64,000 nt of DNA, from NCBI RefSeq assembly GCF_900635455.1, contig NZ_LR134116.1, forward strand, positions 1,736,001 to 1,800,000, written 5' to 3'. The DNA is from Yersinia intermedia (GTDB lineage: Bacteria; Pseudomonadota; Gammaproteobacteria; Enterobacterales; Enterobacteriaceae). Below, piece after piece: positions 6,168-18,415 of this stretch. Both the position numbers and the translations under genes were made by a program. Position 1 is the first letter of the stretch; the number at the start of each line of letters is the position of its first letter. The notes below the pieces were generated by a model. It was not told where the DNA came from. It did no database searches and was given only the letters and a program-made list of their open reading frames with translations.

Positions 6168-7009
6168 ATAACCTACCGGAAGTGCGGTCGGTCTGGCGTC
6201 GGGTGATCCTTGTCATCGGTTATACCTTCTTGTATGCGCCGATGTTGATGTTGGTTATCTACTCATTTAACAGTTCTAAACTGGTAACCGTATGGGCTGG
6301 GTGGTCAACTCGTTGGTATACCGAGCTATTTAATGATTCAGCGATGATATCTGCTGTTGGCCTGAGTCTGACTATTGCCGCTGCCTCCGCCACGATGGCG
6401 GTGGTTCTGGGGACGATAGCCGCCGTGGTCATGGTGCGTTTTGGCCGTTTTCGCGGTTCAACCGGTTTTGCTTTTATGCTGACAGCGCCGCTGGTGATGC
6501 CTGATGTGATTACCGGTTTATCATTGCTGCTACTGTTTGTTGCTATGGGGCATGCTATCGGCTGGCCAGCAGAGCGTGGCATGTTCACCATCTGGCTGGC
6601 GCACGTCACCTTCTGTACCGCTTATGTGACGGTAGTGATAAGTTCTCGCCTGCGTGAGTTGGACCGTTCTATTGAAGAAGCCGCCATGGATTTGGGAGCC
6701 ACACCGCTGAAAGTGTTTTTCGTGATTACCGTGCCGATGATCGCACCGGCATTAATCTCCGGTTGGTTATTGGCCTTTACTTTATCGCTGGACGATTTAG
6801 TGATTGCCAGCTTTGTTGCCGGTCCTGGGGCGACGACGTTGCCGATGCTGGTCTTTTCTAGTGTGCGGATGGGGGTTAACCCAGAGATTAATGCCCTTGC
6901 CACACTTATCTTGCTGGTGGTTGGGATAATCGGTTTAATCGCGTGGTGGTTTATGTCCCGTTCGGAAAAGCAGCGGTTACGTGAATTACGAAAAGCTGCC
7001 CGTAGCTGA
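6164..7009 (+). CDS. potI: putrescine ABC transporter permease
   Basis: A 281-residue permease, the same length as E. coli PotI, with six hydrophobic helices and the EAA motif EEAAMDLGATPLKVFFVITV near residue 171. It pairs with PotH to form the putrescine channel. It starts inside the end of potH. A GC-rich terminator follows at 7044-7065, closing the operon. Confidence 0.96.
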   Translation: MNNLPEVRSVWRRVILVIGYTFLYAPMLMLVIYSFNSSKLVTVWAGWSTRWYTELFNDSAMISAVGLSLTIAAASATMAVVLGTIAAVVMVRFGRFRGSTGFAFMLTAPLVMPDVITGLSLLLLFVAMGHAIGWPAERGMFTIWLAHVTFCTAYVTVVISSRLRELDRSIEEAAMDLGATPLKVFFVITVPMIAPALISGWLLAFTLSLDDLVIASFVAGPGATTLPMLVFSSVRMGVNPEINALATLILLVVGIIGLIAWWFMSRSEKQRLRELRKAARS

Positions 7010-7043
7010 TAGCCATTAAAACTGTTAGGCTTCACCTTTCTTT

Positions 7044-7065
7044 AACGCCGCTGACCAGCGGCGTT
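7044..7065 (+). terminator. terminator of potFGHI
   Basis: Perfect 10-bp stem AACGCCGCTG / CAGCGGCGTT with a 2-base gap, 35 bp after the potI stop. The T run is short (GTTATTGT). Confidence 0.7.
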
Positions 7066-7120
7066 ATTGTCAGAGATAACATTAGGTTGCAGCAACCGGA
7101 CCGAGGGCAGATAGGGCAAC

Positions 7121-7606
7121 ATGAGAAAACTATTTTCATCTTTAGCATTTTCATCCTCTGCATTTTTATCTTCTGCAACAACGCCAGTACCGGTTCTCAT
7201 CGCCGGTATTACCATTATTGCTACCCGTATCCTCGGTGTATTGCTATTGGTTGCTACTCTGGGGTGGAGGGGCGTCGGCGAATTTATCAGTGAAAGCCTG
7301 CAAAGCTGGGATTTTGGCTCGATCTTCTTCGCCAGTGTGGTGCTGTTGCTGTTAGAAATTGTCTGTGGCGTTGCGGTATGTTATCGCAAAAACTGGGCGC
7401 GTTGGTGCTATCTGGTGTGTCAGATTATCACTATTATTTATTTGCTAATGGTGTCACTGGACTGGTTGTATTTAGATGTTTTTCGGGTTGAGGGTGATAC
7501 CGGCAGCGAAATTCTACATAGCCTGCTGTTACAGAAAATCCCGGATGTGGTGATTATCGGTTTGCTATTTTTCCCCTGGCACCGCTATTTCGCTCAGTCA
7601 AAATGA
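7121..7606 (+). CDS. ybjO: YbjO, DUF2593 inner-membrane protein
   Basis: A 161-residue protein, the same length class as E. coli YbjO (162). It has four probable membrane helices (about 22-48, 65-85, 93-113 and 137-153). Conserved stretches include RKNWARWCYLVCQIITI and a C-terminal FPWHRYF. Function is unknown. The position between potI and rlmC is the same as in E. coli. The region before the first helix is Ser/Phe-rich. The ATG at 7121 follows a GGGCA sequence, a weak ribosome site. Confidence 0.85.
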   Translation: MRKLFSSLAFSSSAFLSSATTPVPVLIAGITIIATRILGVLLLVATLGWRGVGEFISESLQSWDFGSIFFASVVLLLLEIVCGVAVCYRKNWARWCYLVCQIITIIYLLMVSLDWLYLDVFRVEGDTGSEILHSLLLQKIPDVVIIGLLFFPWHRYFAQSK

Positions 7607-7695
7607 GTGTTTAGTGTTGCACAATGCTACAATTCGCCCATCAACAGCTTCGGCTGCAAATTATTTAACTTCTCAGATTATAACGGTCAATATTA

Positions 7696-8821
7696 ATGCA
7701 TTGCGCACAGTATACGGCGGGTAGTTGCCGTTCCTGCCAGTGGCTGGATAAACCCTATCCACAACAACTGGCTGACAAACAACATCATCTGGAAAGTCTG
7801 TTAGCCAGTCACGCTGTGGCTCAGTGGCTAGCCCCGGTTTCCGGGCGTGAAAACGCTTTTCGTAATAAAGCGAAAATGGTGGTCAGTGGCAGCGTCGAGC
7901 GGCCACTATTGGGGATGTTGCATCGTGACGGTACCCCGGTCGATTTATGTGATTGCCCACTCTATCCGGCCAGTTTTGCGCCAGTTTTTGCCGTGTTGAA
8001 AACATTTATTGGCCGTGCTGGTCTCACACCCTATAACGTCGCACGCAAACGCGGCGAGCTTAAATTCCTGTTATTGACCGAAAGTACGTATAGCGGTGAG
8101 TTAATGCTGCGCTTTGTGTTGCGTTCTGAAACCAAGCTGGCGCAATTACGCGCAGCTCTGCCGTGGTTACAGCAGCAATTGCCTCAACTGGCTGTTATCT
8201 CGGCTAATATTCAGCCAGTGCATATGGCAATCTTAGAAGGGGAACAAGAAGTCCCGTTGACTGAACAGCAGGCGCTGCCCGAACTGTTTAATCAGGTGCC
8301 GCTGTTTATCCGCCCACAAAGTTTTTTCCAGACCAATCCTCAGGTTGCCGCTTCACTGTATGCCACGGCACGGCAATGGGTGCGGCAGTTAGGTATCAGC
8401 AGTATGTGGGATCTGTTCTGCGGCGTCGGCGGTTTTGGTTTGCATTGTGCCAGCGCCGAGACGCAACTCACCGGTATCGAAATCAGCGCGGAAGCTATCG
8501 CCTGCGCACGCCAATCGGCCCAGCAGTTAGGGTTACAGAATGTCAGTTTTGCCGCACTGGATTCTACCTGTTTCGCCACCGCAGAAACGCAAGTGCCGCA
8601 GTTGGTCTTGGTTAACCCACCACGGCGCGGTATTGGTGCTGAACTGTGTGACTATCTTGCTCAGATGGCGCCTGAATTCATACTCTATTCAAGCTGTAAT
8701 GCACAGACAATGGCAAAAGATATCAGCCTGTTAGCCGATTACCGTATTGAGCGGGTGCAGTTGTTTGATATGTTTCCGCATACTGCTCATTACGAAGTCC
8801 TCGTATTGCTTACCCTGCGTC

Positions 8822-8826
<5 letters not shown>
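7696..8826 (+). CDS. rlmC: 23S rRNA (uracil-747-C5)-methyltransferase
   Basis: A 376-residue RNA methyltransferase of the TrmA/RlmD family that methylates U747 of 23S rRNA using SAM. Visible parts: N-terminal cysteines C3, C11 and C14 of the iron-sulfur cluster (a fourth in CDCPLYP near residue 90), [12 protein letters not shown] motif [10 protein letters not shown] near 238, VNPPRRGIG near 305, and SSCNAQT with the nucleophile C334. E. coli RlmC has 375 residues and the same cysteine position. The stop codon lies inside the first ERIC copy, so the last codons abut repeated DNA. Confidence 0.97.
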
Positions 8827-9178
<352 letters not shown>

Positions 9179-9189
9179 GAGTTATTAAA

Positions 9190-9921
9190 TCAGTTTGGGA
9201 ACCACTTATCATTGATAGCTTTATATGTTCCGTCAGCTTTAACGGCATCAATGGCTTTATTCAATTTCTCCAACAATGCAGTGTTATCCGGGCGTACCGC
9301 AATACCAAGGCCCGTGCCAAAGTATTGAGGGTCGGTCACATGTTCGCCAACTGATGCCAGGTTCGGGTTGGTTTTCAGCCACTCATTCACTACCGCAGTA
9401 TCACCAAACACCCCATCAATACGGCCATTTTTCAGGTCAATGATGGCATTCTGGTAGCTGTCATAAGCCACGGTCTGAATTTCAGGATGTTTGTCCTGCA
9501 AATACTTCTGATGAGTGGTGCCATTTTCCATCCCGATTTTCTTGCCTTTCAGATCGGCAAAAGAACTGAATTTACCTTTTGGTGCAATCACAATGGCGGA
9601 GTTTGCATAGTAAGGTTGGGTGAACGCGACCTGCTTGCTACGCTCAGGGGTGATATCCATGCCGGAAATGACGGCATCATAACGTTTGAATTTCAGCGCC
9701 GGGATGAGGCTATCAAAAGCCTGATTGGTGAAGGTACATTTGGCCTCCATTTGTTTACACAACGCTTTTGCCAGGTCCATATCGAAGCCGACGATTTCGT
9801 TATTGGCATCCATTGATTCAAATGGCGGATAGGTGGCTGAGGCAGCAAAACGAATAGTTTCTGCGGCAGTCGCGCTGAAAACCATACCACTTAGCAGGGT
9901 TGCCAATAGTAACTTTTTCAT
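9190..9921 (-). CDS. artJ: arginine-binding periplasmic protein ArtJ
   Basis: A 243-residue substrate-binding protein of the polar amino acid family. Signal peptide MKKLLLATLLSGMVFSATA, then AETIRFAASATYPPFESMDA. The motif GFDMDLAKALCKQM and the paired NGRIDGVFGDTAVV are typical of ArtJ/ArtI. It binds L-arginine in the periplasm for the ArtQMP transporter. In E. coli artJ is a separate ArgR-repressed unit, and a tandem ArgR operator lies upstream here (10042-10080). It is paralogous to ArtI at 16632-17363. It is separated from the rest of the art genes by a four-gene insert. Confidence 0.95.
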   Translation of the reverse strand: MKKLLLATLLSGMVFSATAAETIRFAASATYPPFESMDANNEIVGFDMDLAKALCKQMEAKCTFTNQAFDSLIPALKFKRYDAVISGMDITPERSKQVAFTQPYYANSAIVIAPKGKFSSFADLKGKKIGMENGTTHQKYLQDKHPEIQTVAYDSYQNAIIDLKNGRIDGVFGDTAVVNEWLKTNPNLASVGEHVTDPQYFGTGLGIAVRPDNTALLEKLNKAIDAVKADGTYKAINDKWFPN

Positions 9922-10041
9922 GCTTAAACTCCTGTCTGAATTATTTTAAATAAAATGAGCCATTAGTTATTGATTTTATTATAACTGGTGATTTTTCATC
10001 ACGATTTATTCGGATGAATCATGGTATTCACATTGCCATTT

Positions 10042-10080
10042 TATGAATTTATATGCAAGTAATGTGATTAAAAATTTAAT
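10042..10080 (-). promoter_or_regulatory. tandem ArgR operator (ARG boxes) of artJ
   Basis: Two ARG-box matches: TGAATTTATATGCA (10044-10057; 13 of 14 against TGAATWWWWATTCA) and TGATTAAAAATTTA (10065-10078; 12 of 14). They start exactly 21 bp apart, the usual 18-bp box plus 3-bp spacing. A TATAAA on the minus strand overlaps the first box and may be the artJ -10. Known: E. coli artJ is repressed by ArgR with arginine. Confidence 0.75.
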
Positions 10081-10343
10081 TTTATTTTTAGGCGAGAAGG
10101 AGAGGAGAAGGTTAAAGAGCAGGGTGTTCAAGTTCGGCTGACATGAGATCGGATCTGTTTTCGGTTGATCTTCGTTTTGTACCCACCGGGTGTTAGCAAC
10201 CTCAACCGGGCCGGAGGGCAGGCTGGCCCTCTTGCACCAGTAGCATGCGCGCAATTCGCCGTACCCTCCGGCAGCCGTTGGCCTTATCTAGCCTCGCGTA
10301 AATCATTAATGTAAGAGTGACCTTACGTTTGGAAAGTTAGCGA
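10081..10343. other. unassigned segment between artJ promoter and the inserted operon
   Basis: About 260 bases that I cannot assign. It is more GC-rich than the AT-rich artJ promoter beside it. The minus strand has an open frame of 82 codons (10006-10254) containing CKRASLPSGPVEVANTRWVQ, but it runs into the artJ operator, has no clear ribosome site and matches no family I recognise. It may be a remnant left by the insertion event. A short inverted motif GGTCACTCTTACA / TGTAAGAGTGACC around 10310 is part of ordinary AT-rich sequence. Confidence 0.3.
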
Positions 10344-10383
10344 ATAATAAAAAGGTGCTACTCCAAAAATGAAAAGCACCCTT
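10344..10383 (-). terminator. intrinsic terminator of the lactone-catabolic operon
   Basis: On the minus strand GGTGCT...AGCACC (arms at 10375-10380 and 10354-10359) is followed by TTTTTATTATT, about 50 bp after the lactonase stop codon. Confidence 0.8.
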
Positions 10384-10430
10384 AATTCAGCGTTGGTGAT
10401 CAATATTCACTGTGCGTGACAACAACCACA

Positions 10431-11222
10431 TCAATCGTAGTATTCAGGCGCGTGCCTGAACGTTTGCCAGGCATCCGGGTCATGGCCTGTCACCACTTGC
10501 GCACTTGTGCGGCTAGCCAACATGCGCATCTTCTGCACCGAACGCACCGTCTCAACGGCTGAGGACATAAATCCTGGCAGAGCTTTTTCTTCCCAGTGAT
10601 CCGTGGTGTATGCTGCATCAATAGTCAGTAGCATCGGACCTGAGTTGGGCAAGGTGACCAGTATTGACTGATGCCCAGGCGAATGGCCGGGTGTAAATAC
10701 TGTTTTCAGCGTACCGTCGCCATAGATATCATAAAAATCATTGTTTTCGCCTTCCAGAAACGCCCATTTCAGACCCGGCCGGTCAAAGTCGTTTCTGATA
10801 TAGCCTCCCGCAGCAAACCAGTCAGGAGTAAAGGCATACTCGTACTCACGGCGCTGAACGATGTGTGTCGCATTGGGGAATCGGCCAATCGCACCGGTAT
10901 GATCAAGATGCAAGTGCGACTGCAAGACATACCGGATATCTTCGGGATTGATCCCCATTTTTTTAAGCTGCGCTACACAGCCCTCATCTTCACGCATTAC
11001 CGGCCAATAAACCTCGGTAATCCCGCCCCAATACCCTTTGGGATCAGTGGCGGTTTCGACAGCATTCCCGCCATCAATCAGCGTGTGACCATCAGGATGG
11101 GTCAGCAGGAAGAACGGGACAGGGATTTCATAATCCGCTCCACCTCCTTGATTCATTTTGATATTGTGGACTTTGCACTTCAGCGAGCCAGTTTGAAACA
11201 TATACAAGCGAATATCGGTCAT
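10431..11222 (-). CDS. blcC: AttM/BlcC-type lactonase (metallo-beta-lactamase fold)
   Basis: A 263-residue hydrolase with the di-zinc motif HLHLDH (H103, H105, D107, H108), H180, D202, Y205 and H247, the ligand and catalytic set of AHL lactonases such as AiiA. From memory the sequence tracks Agrobacterium AttM/BlcC closely from the first residues (MTDIRLYM, KCKVHNIKMNQG, IGRFPNATHIVQR, TGHDPDAW). Known for that family: hydrolysis of gamma-butyrolactone to 4-hydroxybutyrate, and of N-acyl-homoserine lactones, quenching quorum sensing. Last gene of the operon, 49 bp after the alcohol dehydrogenase gene. It is cytoplasmic, with no signal peptide. The symbol is by homology and gene context; the in vivo substrate is inferred. 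Confidence 0.88.
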   Translation of the reverse strand: MTDIRLYMFQTGSLKCKVHNIKMNQGGGADYEIPVPFFLLTHPDGHTLIDGGNAVETATDPKGYWGGITEVYWPVMREDEGCVAQLKKMGINPEDIRYVLQSHLHLDHTGAIGRFPNATHIVQRREYEYAFTPDWFAAGGYIRNDFDRPGLKWAFLEGENNDFYDIYGDGTLKTVFTPGHSPGHQSILVTLPNSGPMLLTIDAAYTTDHWEEKALPGFMSSAVETVRSVQKMRMLASRTSAQVVTGHDPDAWQTFRHAPEYYD

Positions 11223-11271
11223 TTTATTCTATCCTTTCACGTTTCACTTCGTAGGGTATTGGCGATGACGA

Positions 11272-12438
11272 TCAAAAAGCTTCCTGGTAAAGCGCCAAAG
11301 CATCAGCCTCTTTTACCTCGACCGGATTATTGGTCAGAAGACGGGTCTGTTTCATCGCATCTGAGGCTAGCAACGCCAGCGTATCCTCTTTCACCCCGAC
11401 GTCGCGCAAACGTCTCGGCGCACCGCTTTCATCCATGATGCTGATCATTGCATCAATAAACGCGTTGCAACGCGTCTGTACATCTCCTTCTCCGCCCACA
11501 TTGAGTACGTCGGCCAGTTCCGCATATAACAGTGCCGCAGCTTTAGCGTTGTAACGCAATACAGCTCCAAGCATCAGTGCATTAGAGAGGCCGTGGGGAA
11601 TGTGATAATGGCCGCCAAGTGGATAGGCCAGTGCATGTACCGCCGCGACCGGCGAATTGGCGAAAGCCTGGCCGGCCAGTGTTGCGCCCAATAGAATGGC
11701 TTCGCGGGCCTCTCGGTTCGAACCGTCACGACAGGCGGTGACCAGATGTTTATAAATCAGGCGTAATGCTTCTCGAGCCAACGCATCGGATATCGGATTT
11801 TTTTTGTGCTTACTGGTGTATGACTCAATTGCGTGCACCATCGCATCAATACCCGTTGCTGCGGTGTGTGTCGCAGGTAATCCGACGGTTAACTCCGCAT
11901 CCAGTAAAACCAAATCACAATAGAGCTGGCGAGCAACTACACCCATCTTGGTTGTTTCACCTGTAGTAAGGATCGCAATATTGGTCACCTCCGATCCCGT
12001 ACCCGCGGTTGTTGGGATCTGCACCAGAGGTAATCGTTCGCCCTGAACATTATCAATACCGTACAACCCGCTGAGACCCTGTTCTGACTGAGCCAGAATT
12101 GCCACCAGTTTTGCCACATCTAGCGAAGAACCGCCGCCAAGACCAATCACGATATCGATGTGCTGATCCTGTGCAAGACGCGCGGCGTCAAGGACAATGG
12201 CTTCCGGTGGGTCAGCGATAACCCGGTCGAAAACCACCACATCGAAACCGTAGTCGCGTAGACTTTTTTCCACAGGCCGCAACAAGCCTGCTTTGACCAG
12301 CCCTCCATCCGTTACGATCAGTGCTTTACGGGCGGTAAAACGGCCTGACAGGATCTCGCCCAGGCGTTGTGCGCCTGACCATTCCACCAATATTGATGGT
12401 ACTGTTCTGAATTCAAAGGGTTGCATAGCATTTGACAT
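11272..12438 (-). CDS. blcB: iron-type alcohol dehydrogenase, probable 4-hydroxybutyrate dehydrogenase (BlcB/AttL-like)
   Basis: A 388-residue group III (iron-dependent) alcohol dehydrogenase. NAD-binding GGGSSLD (101-107), TTAGTGSE (143-150), and metal ligands D198, H202, H268 and H282, the same spacing pattern as E. coli FucO. Its place between a succinic semialdehyde dehydrogenase-like gene and a butyrolactonase-like gene indicates oxidation of 4-hydroxybutyrate to succinic semialdehyde, as for Agrobacterium BlcB/AttL. It begins 61 bp after the dehydrogenase stop codon. Substrate is inferred from context; the fold and metal site are seen directly. Maleylacetate reductases share the fold but would not fit these neighbours. 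Confidence 0.82.
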   Translation of the reverse strand: MSNAMQPFEFRTVPSILVEWSGAQRLGEILSGRFTARKALIVTDGGLVKAGLLRPVEKSLRDYGFDVVVFDRVIADPPEAIVLDAARLAQDQHIDIVIGLGGGSSLDVAKLVAILAQSEQGLSGLYGIDNVQGERLPLVQIPTTAGTGSEVTNIAILTTGETTKMGVVARQLYCDLVLLDAELTVGLPATHTAATGIDAMVHAIESYTSKHKKNPISDALAREALRLIYKHLVTACRDGSNREAREAILLGATLAGQAFANSPVAAVHALAYPLGGHYHIPHGLSNALMLGAVLRYNAKAAALLYAELADVLNVGGEGDVQTRCNAFIDAMISIMDESGAPRRLRDVGVKEDTLALLASDAMKQTRLLTNNPVEVKEADALALYQEAF

Positions 12439-12499
12439 AATACTTTCCCTCTTTCCTGGTGAATTAACATGTGTGAGTTTTAATAGTAAAACGCGGTGC

Positions 12500-13954
12500 T
12501 CACCCTACCGATGTGCAGAAATATTTGATCTCAAGGTATTCGTCGATACCGTATTTTGAGCCTTCTCTGCCGATCCCTGACTGCTTCATTCCTCCAAATG
12601 GCGCGACTTCGTTGGAGATAAGTCCGGTGTTATGACCCACCATGCCGTACTCCAGCGCCTCCGCGACCCGCCACATTCTTTTGCTGTTTTCGGTAAAGAA
12701 ATAAGCTGCCAGACCGAATTCAGTGTCATTGGCCATTGCCACCGCCTCTTCTTCTGTATCAAAACGGAACAGCGGCGCAACCGGGCCGAAAGTCTCTTCC
12801 CGCGCAATAAGCATGTTACGAGTGACGTTGACAATCACCGTTGGCTCAACAAACAGCCCACCGGAGACATGCCGATTGCCGCCTACTAATATCTCCCCCC
12901 CTTTATTTTTTGCATCCTGAATGTGGCTCTCGACTTTAGCCACCGCATCTTCGTCAATCAGCGGGCCAACCTGAACACCTTCATTAACGCCGTTACCTAC
13001 AGTCAAGCCTCTGACACGCTCCACCAGGCGCTGTGCAAACCGGTCGTAGATACCGGACTGCACCAGAAAACGGTTGGTACATACACAGGTTTGACCGGCA
13101 TTGCGGAACTTGGATTGCACTGCACCGTCAACTGCGGCTTCAATATCCGCATCATCAAAGACGATAAATGGCGCGTTACCCCCCAGTTCCAGCGACACAC
13201 GTTTCAGCGTTGGCGCGCATTGTGCCATCAACAAGCGCCCAATCGGCGTTGAACCGGTGAACGAGAGTTTTCTGACCACATCGCTTTTCGTCAACTCGCC
13301 GCCAATGATTTTTGCATCGCCCGTGACGATTTGCAGAACACCCGCCGGGATCCCCGCACGTATTGCCAGTTCGCCTAACGCTAATGCGGTCAAGGGGGTT
13401 TGTTCTGCTGGTTTGACGATCATTACGCAGCCCGCAGCCAGCGCAGGCGCGGCTTTACGGGTGATCATCGCCGCAGGGAAATTCCAAGGGGTAATTGCTG
13501 CGCAAACGCCAACTGGTTGTTTTAGTACCACCAGTCGCTTATCGGCTTGTGGCGAGGGGATCACGTCGCCGTAACTACGTTTGCCCTCTTCGGCAAACCA
13601 GTCAATAAATGACGCGGCATACGCCACTTCCCCACGGGATTCTGCGAGGGGTTTACCTTGCTCAGCAGTTATGATGGCGGCAAGATCAGCACTGTTTTCA
13701 GTGATAAGATCAAACCAACGACGCAATACCACGCAGCGCTCTTTGGCGGTTTTCTCACGCCAGAGTAAAAAAGCTTGCTGCGCGGCGGAGATAGCTTCTT
13801 CGATAGCGGCCTGTTCAAGCAGGGGAACATTGGCTACTATCTCGTCAGTGGCTGGGTTCGTGACTGGATATGTTGCGCCGTCAGCGGCAGAACGCCATTC
13901 TCCGGCGAGCAGGCAGGTTTCCTTTAACAACGATGGATCGCGTAAATCGAGCAT
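12500..13954 (-). CDS. blcA: succinic semialdehyde dehydrogenase (BlcA/AttK, GabD-like)
   Basis: A 484-residue NAD(P)-dependent aldehyde dehydrogenase: ITPWNFP (154-160), FTGSTPIGR (232-240), catalytic base in LELGGN (E256), nucleophile C290 in NAGQTC followed by C292, and EETFGPVAPLF near the C-terminus. Length matches GabD (482). The paired Cys-x-Cys is also found in succinic semialdehyde dehydrogenases. It would oxidise succinic semialdehyde to succinate, feeding the TCA cycle. The start MLDLRDPSLL at 13954 is chosen because AGGAGGGG lies just upstream; a longer frame to 14032 would cross the operator. First gene of the operon. Confidence 0.85.
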   Translation of the reverse strand: MLDLRDPSLLKETCLLAGEWRSAADGATYPVTNPATDEIVANVPLLEQAAIEEAISAAQQAFLLWREKTAKERCVVLRRWFDLITENSADLAAIITAEQGKPLAESRGEVAYAASFIDWFAEEGKRSYGDVIPSPQADKRLVVLKQPVGVCAAITPWNFPAAMITRKAAPALAAGCVMIVKPAEQTPLTALALGELAIRAGIPAGVLQIVTGDAKIIGGELTKSDVVRKLSFTGSTPIGRLLMAQCAPTLKRVSLELGGNAPFIVFDDADIEAAVDGAVQSKFRNAGQTCVCTNRFLVQSGIYDRFAQRLVERVRGLTVGNGVNEGVQVGPLIDEDAVAKVESHIQDAKNKGGEILVGGNRHVSGGLFVEPTVIVNVTRNMLIAREETFGPVAPLFRFDTEEEAVAMANDTEFGLAAYFFTENSKRMWRVAEALEYGMVGHNTGLISNEVAPFGGMKQSGIGREGSKYGIDEYLEIKYFCTSVG

Positions 13955-13989
13955 GTTTCCCCTCCTTCTACAGGAATTTATATTTGTAA

Positions 13990-14024
13990 GTTCAGTATAT
14001 TGAACTAAATTCACTATATTGAAT
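13990..14024. promoter_or_regulatory. double-palindrome operator of the lactone-catabolic operon
   Basis: Two 16-bp palindromes, GTTCAGTATATTGAAC (13990-14005) and ATTCACTATATTGAAT (14009-14024), each with perfect 5-bp arms. The half-sites TTCA/TGAA start at 13991, 14001, 14010 and 14020, so all four face nearly the same side of the helix. They lie between the divergent regulator and dehydrogenase genes. Known: BlcR binds as a tetramer to two inverted repeats at the blcABC promoter. Binding here is inferred. Confidence 0.75.
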
Positions 14025-14052
14025 TGTGGCATGAAAATTAAATAAACGTCAA
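14023..14052 (-). promoter_or_regulatory. candidate promoter of the lactone-catabolic operon
   Basis: On the minus strand TTGACG (14052-14047) lies 18 bp from CACAAT (14028-14023), a good -35 with a mediocre -10 that overlaps the operator. This arrangement would suit repression. Tentative. Confidence 0.4.
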
Positions 14053-14075
14053 ATTATTGTTAAAAAGTGAGATCC

Positions 14076-14864
14076 ATGTCGAAAAATACAGAGACAGAGA
14101 CGTCCGGGAACAGTGCGCCTGCATTACGCCGCGCCATTCTGATTCTAGATGCAGTAAGCGAGCATCCTACTCCCCCGACTTTTACTGAGATCGTGACAAT
14201 ACTCGGTCTGCCTAAAAGCTCTGCACATGGCCTATGTGCCGCGCTGGTGGATTTGGGGATGTTAATTCGTACCGACGCTGGAACCTATCGAGTTGGGGGG
14301 CGGGTGATGAATTGGGCTAACGCCTTTCTTGGCCAGACCGATCTGGTCGAGGAATTCCAGCGACTCCTGCAAGAACGGCGTGAACTGAGTGATTTCACTG
14401 TCACCATGACGGTATTAGATGGTCAGCAGGTGGTTTATGTTGCCTGTTCCAACAGCAAGGCCGCGTTGGGGTTTACATTTCGGATTGGAATGCGTCTCCC
14501 CGTGCCCTTTACGGCAACGGGCAAAGCGATTCTCAGTACTTTTAATGATGAGGATATCCGCCGCCGCTTTGAAACTGGCTGGCCTCAGTTGCTCACGGCT
14601 CACAGCGTGGCGTCACTCCCGGCACTTTTACAGGAATTAACACTCGTCCGCCAACGAGGCTACTCGGTAGATGATGGGCAGATCCGTGAAGGGATGTTTT
14701 GTATTGGAGCCCCAGTATATGATTTTTCAGGTCAAGTGGTGGCTGGTCTGGCCGTGAGTATGTTAGAACAAGAAGCGACAGAATCAACCATCGAGACTAT
14801 CGGCAGTAAACTGGTGGATATTGCCGCTTCCCTTTCGGCCAGATTGGGGAATCGTCGCGTTTAA
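14076..14864 (+). CDS. blcR: IclR-family transcriptional regulator (BlcR/AttJ-like)
   Basis: A 262-residue regulator: N-terminal winged helix-turn-helix (about 15-75, with TEIVTILGLPKSSAHGLCAA as the recognition region) and a C-terminal IclR effector domain (VTMTVLDGQQVVYVACSN, GMRLPVPFTATGKAIL, ...GYSVDDGQIREGMFCIGAPV). It is divergent from the dehydrogenase gene and shares a 121-bp control region with a double palindrome. By analogy with Agrobacterium BlcR it should repress the operon and release it when 4-hydroxybutyrate or succinic semialdehyde binds. The ATG at 14076 is preferred over a GTG at 14067 because of GTGAG upstream. Family membership is clear; effector is inferred. Confidence 0.82.
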   Translation: MSKNTETETSGNSAPALRRAILILDAVSEHPTPPTFTEIVTILGLPKSSAHGLCAALVDLGMLIRTDAGTYRVGGRVMNWANAFLGQTDLVEEFQRLLQERRELSDFTVTMTVLDGQQVVYVACSNSKAALGFTFRIGMRLPVPFTATGKAILSTFNDEDIRRRFETGWPQLLTAHSVASLPALLQELTLVRQRGYSVDDGQIREGMFCIGAPVYDFSGQVVAGLAVSMLEQEATESTIETIGSKLVDIAASLSARLGNRRV

Positions 14865-15235
14865 CACGAAGGCGATAAGAAGCATAAGCAATGGAGTAGG
14901 GGACTAAAGGTAAGTCGCTCATTTAGGCCGTCTGCCAGTATCCCCTGTTCAGGGAACATAATGTCCATCATTTATGCGGTGCTGACGAAATCTTGGCTTG
15001 TTTGGGTGGGCAGGATAGGATTGCTGGGAACGTGATGGTGATAGCACTACTGAAGATAGTGAGGGCCGGGAAGCCGAGTGCAAGTGCGGATTGTTAAGGC
15101 CCACGGTTATGGGCCTTAACTCAGTTGAGGCTGTCGAGCTAAGATTATCGCTGAACGATTATCAACCGAAAGGTAACTGGTTCAGTCCTAACAACCCAAT
15201 TAGATCACTAAGCCGTAATGGGTTAATAAATAGCG
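14865..15235. other. intergenic region at the right edge of the insert
   Basis: 371 bases between the regulator gene and artM. It holds a strong hairpin (15093-15120). The left part is more GC-rich and shows no coding frame I can support. No attachment site, direct repeat or insertion sequence is recognisable. Confidence 0.4.
15093..15120. terminator. hairpin downstream of artM
   Basis: Perfect 11-bp stem GTTAAGGCCCA / TGGGCCTTAAC with a 6-base loop. It lies 115 bp past the artM stop and about 230 bp past the regulator stop. Neither side has a T run, so it may stabilise transcripts or terminate weakly. Confidence 0.5.
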
Positions 15236-15904
15236 TTAATTCCGCCGCTCAAACGCCAGCGCTCTGCGTTCTACCAACCGCATCAGCAACGTCAGCAAAC
15301 CATTCACGCACAGATAGACAATCCCGGCGGCACCAAACACCATCACGTCATAGGTACGGCCATACATCAGTTGGCTATAGCCCATAACTTCCATCAATGT
15401 GATGGTATAAGCCAGTGAGGTACTTTTAAATACCAAGACCACTTCGTTGGAATAGGATGATAATGCGCGCTTAAAGGCGAATGGCAGTAGGATGCGTAGC
15501 GACTGGGGTTTTGACATCCCCAATGCTTCGCAGGATTGCCACTGACCCGCTGGAATTGCCCTAACTGCACCGTAGAACAGTTGCGTGGTATAGGCCGCAC
15601 TGTTCAATGCCAACGCAATCATTGCGCACAACCAAGGTTGCGACAACAAACTCCATAACCACGGATATTCACGGATAGCAGGGAATTGGCCTGGGCCGTA
15701 ATAGATCAAAAAGATTTGCACCAGCAGCGGGGTGCCGGTGAACAGTGTGATATAAATTTTAACCAGTGGCGTGATAATGGGTGTTTTTAGCGTTAACACA
15801 ATGGTAAACAGCAGTGACAACACCAGTGCCACCAATAGCGATGCAATCGTCAACGTCAGGCTGGTATGCAGCCCTTTAAGGATCTCAGGTAAATATTCCA
15901 GCAT
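15236..15904 (-). CDS. artM: arginine ABC transporter permease ArtM
   Basis: A 222-residue inner-membrane permease of the His/Glu/Gln/Arg family, the same length as E. coli ArtM. The EAA-like loop is CEALGMSKPQSLRILLPFAF near residue 125. It forms the membrane channel with ArtQ. Its ATG overlaps the artQ stop codon by one base, so the two are translationally coupled. Last gene of artPIQM. Confidence 0.95.
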   Translation of the reverse strand: MLEYLPEILKGLHTSLTLTIASLLVALVLSLLFTIVLTLKTPIITPLVKIYITLFTGTPLLVQIFLIYYGPGQFPAIREYPWLWSLLSQPWLCAMIALALNSAAYTTQLFYGAVRAIPAGQWQSCEALGMSKPQSLRILLPFAFKRALSSYSNEVVLVFKSTSLAYTITLMEVMGYSQLMYGRTYDVMVFGAAGIVYLCVNGLLTLLMRLVERRALAFERRN

Positions 15905-18284: not shown

Positions 18285-18415
18285 GAGCTATCCCCGTCAT
18301 CTTTCAAATTGCAGGGGTGTTGGCTGCTCTCGCTAACCCGAATCACTTACCAGTGTAAGCTCATCGGGATGCACTCCTTTGCCGCCTACCTGCAATCCGA
18401 AATCTATAGGGGATA
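18285..18415. repeat. ERIC element upstream of artP / downstream of ybjP
   Basis: Contains CGCTAACCCGAATCACTTAC followed by CAGTGTAAGCTCATCGGG and the outer ends TTGCAGGGGTGTTGGCTGC and GCCGCCTACCTGCAA. It belongs to the same family as 8822-9178. A partial second left end (TTTCAAATTGCAGGGGTGTTGGCGGC, split here at 18425-18450) follows at once, next to the ybjP stop codon. Confidence 0.75.

What the first reader, a model, noticed from the sequence alone, without database searches (positions are those of the whole stretch)
10431..14864. A blc/att-type gamma-butyrolactone catabolic operon inserted inside the arginine uptake locus
Four genes separate artJ from artPIQM, which are adjacent in E. 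coli. Regulator (IclR), aldehyde dehydrogenase, iron alcohol dehydrogenase and AttM/BlcC-like lactonase match the Agrobacterium set attJ-attKLM (blcR-blcABC). All catalytic residues are intact (C290/E256; D198-H202-H268-H282; HLHLDH plus H180, D202, Y205, H247). They form a complete route from gamma-butyrolactone to succinate. Finding a Rhizobiaceae-type module at an enterobacterial core locus suggests horizontal transfer, and would let the bacterium use lactones or GHB made by plants or animals.
Basis: partly seen in the sequence, partly recalled or inferred. Interest (0 to 1): 0.8.

Follow-up and report, generated by a model that had tools for sequence, protein, structure and literature searches.

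The report
Mobile gamma-butyrolactone catabolic cassette in Yersinia
A four-gene set that very probably lets bacteria feed on gamma-butyrolactone and GHB, known from the plant bacterium Agrobacterium, sits next to the arginine-uptake genes of one Yersinia genome, most likely passed on by enterobacterial relatives rather than straight from Agrobacterium's family.

Summary
Observation confirmed: blcR (+) and blcABC (-) lie between artJ and artM, with the cited catalytic residues intact. Gene set, order and a two-site operator match the Agrobacterium system; the operator pair, exactly 19 bp apart, occurs in 36 of 36 blcR-blcA gaps examined. Horizontal gain is well supported: 1 of 25 genomes of the genus has full-length BlcC, 19 have a plain 324-939 bp artM-artJ spacer, and the same cassette (86-87% DNA identity over 4.4-4.5 kb) sits elsewhere in Ewingella, Rouxiella and Hafnia. 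Pantoea, Erwinia and Pluralibacter carry a second, alphaproteobacterial-type lineage. New details: the artM-artJ junction holds other cargo in three more genomes, and the host has two AHL synthases beside an AttM lactonase. It is a new member of a known kind in a new host. Substrate use, induction and any effect on quorum sensing are inferred, not shown.

The parts
10431..11222 (-). blcC (attM): metallo-beta-lactamase-fold lactonase, 263 aa
   Evidence: NF045700 AttM 487.1 bits vs cut-off 390; best solved relatives 9khq and 9kho; active-site residues present
11272..12438 (-). blcB (attL): iron-type alcohol dehydrogenase, inferred 4-hydroxybutyrate dehydrogenase, 388 aa
   Evidence: PF25137 and PF00465; D198/H202/H268/H282; no NCBIfam cut-off reached; 92-94% identical to the Ewingella, Rouxiella and Hafnia copies
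12500..13954 (-). blcA (attK): succinate-semialdehyde dehydrogenase, 484 aa (the ORF could start at 14032)
   Evidence: TIGR01780 SSADH 722.2 bits vs cut-off 646.35; E256, C290
14076..14864 (+). blcR (attJ): IclR-family repressor, 262 aa
   Evidence: Best solved relative 3mq0, 'Transcriptional repressor of the blcABC operon', 252 bits; next 88 bits
13989..14006 (.). operator site 2, 18-bp pseudopalindrome
   Evidence: Strong site at 9-10 of 10 half-site matches in 36 of 36 gaps; coordinates checked
14008..14025 (.). operator site 1, 19 bp from site 2, overlapping the putative -10
   Evidence: Partner at exactly 19 bp with at least 6 of 10 matches in 36 of 36 gaps; coordinates checked
14023..14052 (-). 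putative blcA promoter: TTGACG (14052-14047), 18-bp spacer, CACAAT (14028-14023)
   Evidence: TTGAC upstream of the operator in 32 of 36 gaps; -10 chosen by eye, letters checked; inference
10350..10383 (-). terminator-like hairpin after blcC; homology to the Ewingella and Rouxiella cassettes ends here
   Evidence: Fold of 98 nt -27 kcal/mol, z -2.63; homology ends at 10354 and 10352; sequences compared. The Hafnia match ends earlier, at 10430
10352..14852 (.). transferred unit as defined by homology with the Ewingella and Rouxiella cassettes
9190..9921 (-). artJ, flanking
   Evidence: NF011583 passes its cut-off; the ArtJ model is the best hit (487 bits, cut-off 510 not reached)
15236..15904 (-). 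artM, flanking (then artQ, artI, artP)
   Evidence: NF008336 417 bits vs 248

Best explanation
It is a complete blcR-blcABC cassette, gained horizontally from a pool that circulates in Enterobacterales and placed in the artM-artJ spacer of one Yersinia genome. BlcR, probably a tetramer, holds two operators that overlap the blcA promoter and lets go when 4-hydroxybutyrate (GHB) or succinic semialdehyde (SSA) rises. BlcC opens gamma-butyrolactone to GHB, BlcB oxidises GHB to SSA, BlcA oxidises SSA to succinate. Shown here: genes, residues, operator conservation, patchy distribution, empty sites, tree position. Inferred from the Agrobacterium system: ligands, substrates, direction of regulation.
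For: Family and structure matches. Order R<-A->B->C in 35 of 69 scored related loci. Operator pair in 36 of 36 gaps; under looser limits 0.037% of shuffled gaps had such a pair. In Agrobacterium these genes convert GBL to succinate and BlcR is released by pathway compounds (passages of PMC5924552, PMC6402643, PMC4231840 and PMC3907764). 1 of 25 genus genomes has full-length BlcC. In the nearest sister, G008, the flanks are 92-96% identical and the spacer is 939 bp without the cassette. Ewingella and Rouxiella cassettes are 95% alike over 4554 bp, with no other match over 150 bp listed between the two 20.8-kb loci, so the unit moves as a block. Third-codon-position identity between window and Ewingella is 68-74% for the four blc genes against 47-58% for two neighbouring core genes.
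Against: BlcB reaches no curated cut-off, including the 4-hydroxybutyrate dehydrogenase model NF058672 (238 vs 500 bits), and its closest solved relatives are methanol, ethanol-type and 1,3-propanediol dehydrogenases, so its substrate is inferred from context. BlcA misses the GabD equivalog cut-off (760 vs 828). No transporter lies in the cassette. Its GC (48-56% in 500-bp windows) is close to that of its flanks (43-52%). The codon comparison rests on two core genes only (87 and 161 codons), and fourfold-site identity of 62-69% means the transfer is not very recent. One genome per species: fixation in the species is unknown.
Confidence: 0.85

Rival explanations
1. Direct import of the operon from Rhizobiaceae.
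For: Same gene set and operator layout as in Rhizobium and Agrobacterium loci; BlcC 72-77% identical to the Rhizobiaceae loci.
Against: The smallest strongly supported set that holds the window is wholly enterobacterial in each tree: SH-aLRT BlcC 96 (9 rows), BlcA 96 (5 rows) and 98 (10 rows), BlcB 98 (10 rows), BlcR 99 (10 rows). A lineage close to Rhizobiaceae rows exists, but in Pantoea, Erwinia and Pluralibacter.
Confidence: 0.04
2. The main selected role is quorum quenching: BlcC destroys AHLs of competitors or of the host itself, and lactone catabolism is secondary.
For: BlcC passes the AttM AHL-lactonase model. The host has two LuxI synthases, each beside a LuxR-type ORF. Photorhabdus keeps blcC alone (12 loci), and its culture fluids reduce an AHL signal (PMC4235431, passages).
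Against: All four genes are kept in the window and in nine loci of its clade, with the operator. Only 3 of the 9 enterobacterial carriers tested encode a LuxI. In Agrobacterium BlcC allows growth on GBL but not on the AHL, and its effect on Ti transfer is disputed.
Confidence: 0.15
3. Vertical inheritance in Yersinia with many losses.
For: The nearest cassettes are in Yersiniaceae and Hafniaceae.
Against: Present in 1 of 25 genomes of the genus; different chromosomal sites in Ewingella, Rouxiella and Hafnia; cassette more alike than two neighbouring core genes.
Confidence: 0.05

Closest known systems
blcR-blcABC (attJ-attKLM) of Agrobacterium tumefaciens C58
   Same: Gene content, divergent order, IclR repressor with 3mq0 as best solved relative, active-site residues, two-site operator as in Agrobacterium loci L027, L030, L071
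   Different: In the chromosome-sized single contig of a Yersinia, between artM and artJ; against Rhizobiaceae loci BlcR is 46-50%, BlcA 68-71%, BlcB 68-75% and BlcC 72-77% identical; enterobacterial clade. C58 itself was not compared directly, apart from the solved BlcR
blc cassettes of Ewingella americana, Rouxiella aceris and Hafnia psychrotolerans
   Same: Same clade, 86-87% DNA identity over 4.4-4.5 kb, same order
   Different: Other chromosomal sites
Orphan AttM of Photorhabdus (Plu2238 and others in PMC4235431, passages)
   Same: BlcC 83-85% identical in 12 loci
   Different: No blcA, blcB or blcR match of comparable quality in the fetched flanks and no operator in 400 bp upstream
Native GabD-like succinate-semialdehyde dehydrogenase
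   Same: Same predicted reaction as BlcA
   Different: 54-56% identical, found in all 25 genus genomes, at another place in this one; so the SSA step was already available and the gain is lactone opening and GHB oxidation

Membership tests
blcR-blcABC system | AttM-type lactonase | tested here: met
   NF045700 487.1 bits, cut-off 390
blcR-blcABC system | Succinate-semialdehyde dehydrogenase | tested here: met
   TIGR01780 subfamily 722.2 bits, cut-off 646.35; the GabD equivalog is not reached (760 vs 828)
blcR-blcABC system | Fe-type alcohol dehydrogenase acting on GHB | tested here: inconclusive
   Family and metal ligands met; no NCBIfam cut-off reached
blcR-blcABC system | Divergent IclR repressor of BlcR type | tested here: met
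   3mq0 BlcR 252 bits, next IclR 88 bits; divergent order
blcR-blcABC system | Two operator sites before blcA | tested here: met
   Pair at 19 bp in 36 of 36 gaps, the window included; that these are BlcR sites is inferred from position and conservation
blcR-blcABC system | Induction by GHB or SSA and growth on GBL | not testable with these tools
   Needs experiment
AHL lactonase (quorum quenching) | Hydrolyses AHLs | not testable with these tools
   Only family membership; substrate assay needed
Genomic island or transposon | Integrase or transposase gene, or terminal repeats | tested here: not met
   The ORFs of 100 aa or more listed from 9.1 to 15.3 kb are blc and art genes plus five overlapping plus-strand ORFs without a Pfam match; no repeat of 12 bp or more within the artJ-side flank or within the artM-side flank (the two flanks were not compared with each other there). 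Shorter ORFs were not scanned

The most novel reading that the evidence does not exclude
In this AHL-producing Yersinia the cassette works as a metabolic reset of quorum sensing: host- or plant-derived GHB, SSA or butyrolactone frees blcABC from BlcR, and BlcC then also destroys the cell's own AHLs. The artM-artJ junction would at the same time be a genus-wide landing site where species swap niche functions (lactone use, opine metallophore, beta-helix protein) next to arginine uptake.
Probability: 0.2. Interest if true: 0.6.

Novelty: new member of a known kind. Interest (0 to 1): 0.35.

Why it matters
It adds a Yersinia with two AHL synthases to the carriers of a lactone-catabolic switch, shows that the switch moves as a compact cassette (regulator to terminator) among Enterobacterales, and gives a comparative picture of the BlcR operator (two 18-bp sites, 19 bp apart). 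It also points to artM-artJ as a site of variable cargo in the genus.

Tried and rejected
Rejected: Rhizobiaceae as direct donor (trees). Rejected: an obvious mobile element at the edges; the spacers on both sides do carry repeat-like stretches found elsewhere in the genome, whose role is unknown.

Tried without a clear result: a wider BlcR regulon. The palindrome core GTTCA-N6-TGAAC occurs at 7 places in the genome against 4 for the reversed control pattern; I did not look for partner sites at the other six. A GABA route by GabT: 4 aminotransferase hits, none over the TIGR00700 cut-off, so GABA induction is unsupported but not excluded. E. coli: 25 of 5426 genomes matched under the megablast search, each over about a tenth of the query; the 10 rows listed were all artJ.

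Papers: AttM with Yersinia (34 papers, 20 listed, listing only), gamma-butyrolactone with Yersinia and lactonase (8 papers, listing only), AttM with Pantoea, Rhizobium and gamma-butyrolactone (3 papers, listing only), and 4-hydroxybutyrate with lactonase, horizontal gene transfer and Enterobacter (0 papers). No title listed is about this cassette in Yersinia; that covers only the open-licence library. Structure prediction was not run, since close solved relatives exist for BlcC and BlcR.

Rows dropped: 2 of 71 loci (L069, L072) failed the coverage filter, leaving 69. For the trees, hits under 80% coverage, BlcA and BlcB rows under 50% identity and BlcR rows under 40% were left out. The trees are quick ones with SH-aLRT only, no bootstrap. 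The BlcB tree was cut and printed whole.

Full report
What is there. The window holds blcC, blcB and blcA on the minus strand and blcR divergent on the plus strand, between artJ and artM. Names rest on family models: AttM lactonase NF045700, SSADH TIGR01780, Fe-ADH Pfam domains and an IclR regulator. The best solved relative of BlcR is the blcABC repressor 3mq0; that of BlcC is 9khq, labelled N-acylhomoserine lactonase. The cited active-site residues are present. The nearest named LuxI relatives are Yersinia aldovae (86%), Y. mollaretii (85%) and Y. enterocolitica (84%), so the genus is Yersinia by inference and the species is undetermined.

Is it an insertion? Of 25 genomes of the genus, one per species, only the window's has a full-length BlcC; six others have weak partial hits. 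In 19 genomes artM and artJ are 324-939 bp apart, against 5314 bp here. Two others, G011 and G022, have other genes between artM and artJ. Three could not be settled because contigs end: G001, G017 and G020. The nearest sister, G008, matches the flanks at 92-96% and lacks the cassette. In the sisters the artJ-side homology stops near window position 10088 and the artM-side homology near 15236, so the spacer itself varies among species and the exact insertion point cannot be fixed.

Where did it come from? A scan of genome contigs gave 71 loci with BlcC relatives. Of 69 scored, 35 have the same R<-A->B->C order. The closest are Ewingella, Rouxiella and Hafnia at 86-87% DNA identity. In the first two the homology stops at the terminator-like hairpin; in Hafnia it stops at the end of blcC. 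The Ewingella and Rouxiella cassettes are 95% alike over 4554 bp and no other match over 150 bp was listed between these loci. The window branches with Ewingella and Rouxiella in BlcC (81), BlcA (80) and BlcR (94); in BlcB the order among window, Hafnia and these two is open within a set of four (91) (SH-aLRT). Wider enterobacterial sets have 96-99. Pantoea and Erwinia (all four proteins) and Pluralibacter (BlcC, BlcB) fall among alphaproteobacterial rows, a second import; AttM genes 77-78% identical to the window's also lie on Pantoea plasmids. In a draw of 246 family genomes, 11, the window's included, have a full-length BlcC of at least 61% identity, a patchy spread.

How it likely works. 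The gap between blcR and blcA contains two 18-bp pseudopalindromes of the type AGTTCA-N6-TGAACT, 19 bp apart. In 36 of 36 gaps the strong site has 9-10 of 10 matches and the partner, with at least 6, lies at exactly 19 bp; at any other spacing from 14 to 26 bp at most one gap had such a partner. Shuffled gaps met looser limits (8 and 6) in 0.037%. The gaps are related, so these are not 36 independent tests, but they range from enterobacteria to Agrobacterium. The first site overlaps a TTGACG-N18-CACAAT promoter (chosen by eye, letters checked). This fits repression by a BlcR tetramer and release by pathway compounds, as described for Agrobacterium (passages in PMC6402643, PMC5924552, PMC3907764 and PMC4231840). 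One primary paper was not held; the others were not looked up.

What the host gains. All 25 genus genomes have a GabD-like enzyme 54-56% identical to BlcA. The new abilities would be opening the lactone and oxidising GHB. The genome has two LuxI synthases, each next to a LuxR-type regulator; 21 of 25 genus genomes have at least one LuxI. So BlcC might also act on the cell's own AHLs. Only 3 of 9 enterobacterial cassette carriers have LuxI, which speaks against quorum quenching as the general reason for keeping the cassette.

The site. The artM-artJ junction holds other genes in G011 (a 511-aa beta-helix protein) and in G022 (about 11 kb, with a staphylopine-dehydrogenase-like enzyme, a nicotianamine-synthase-like enzyme and an ABC importer, then artJ; the last 5 kb of it were not annotated). 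In G020 an MFS transporter, a Uxu-type regulator and an adhesin-like fragment follow artM up to a contig end, and artJ was not seen. This looks like a variable site in the genus, a lead rather than a proven hot spot.

Verdict. Confirmed observation, partly supported interpretation: known biochemistry in a new host, with a clear record of movement within Enterobacterales.

Noticed in passing
L141:5218-6753; L142:1590-7514 with artJ at L170:4934; L143:2491-6043: The artM side of the artM-artJ junction carries unrelated cargo in three other genomes of the genus: a beta-helix protein, an opine-metallophore-like cluster, and a transporter/regulator/adhesin set that runs to a contig end.
   Followed up: partly
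L013-L021, L023, L024, L066: Photorhabdus has an orphan blcC (83-85% identical) without blcA, blcB or blcR beside it and without a BlcR-type operator pair in 400 bp upstream, in 12 of 12 loci.
   Followed up: partly
L032, L034, L035, L074; Pantoea plasmid hits H1, H2, H3, H5: A second, alphaproteobacterial-type blc lineage in Pantoea, Erwinia and Pluralibacter; AttM genes also on Pantoea plasmids.
   Followed up: partly
G000:C1:1940870-1941403 (L167) and G000:C1:796512-797036 (L168): Two luxI genes, each next to a luxR-type gene, in the genome that carries the AttM lactonase.
   Followed up: partly
window 10132-10293 and 15080-15171: Repeat-like stretches on either side of the cassette, with copies elsewhere in the genome and in some sister spacers.
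   Followed up: partly
window 8822-9177: Tandem copies of a unit of about 123 bp between rlmC and artJ, varying among sisters, with a related copy near 18303-18402 (read from the offsets).
   Followed up: no
L004:77-4509 and 6315-10867: In Ewingella the cassette lies beside genes homologous to the first 2.6 kb of this window, i.e. in the same chromosomal neighbourhood but at another spot.
   Followed up: partly
L089, L090, L091: A separate, strongly supported group of BlcC-like lactonases (61-62% identical) in three other family genomes.
   Followed up: no
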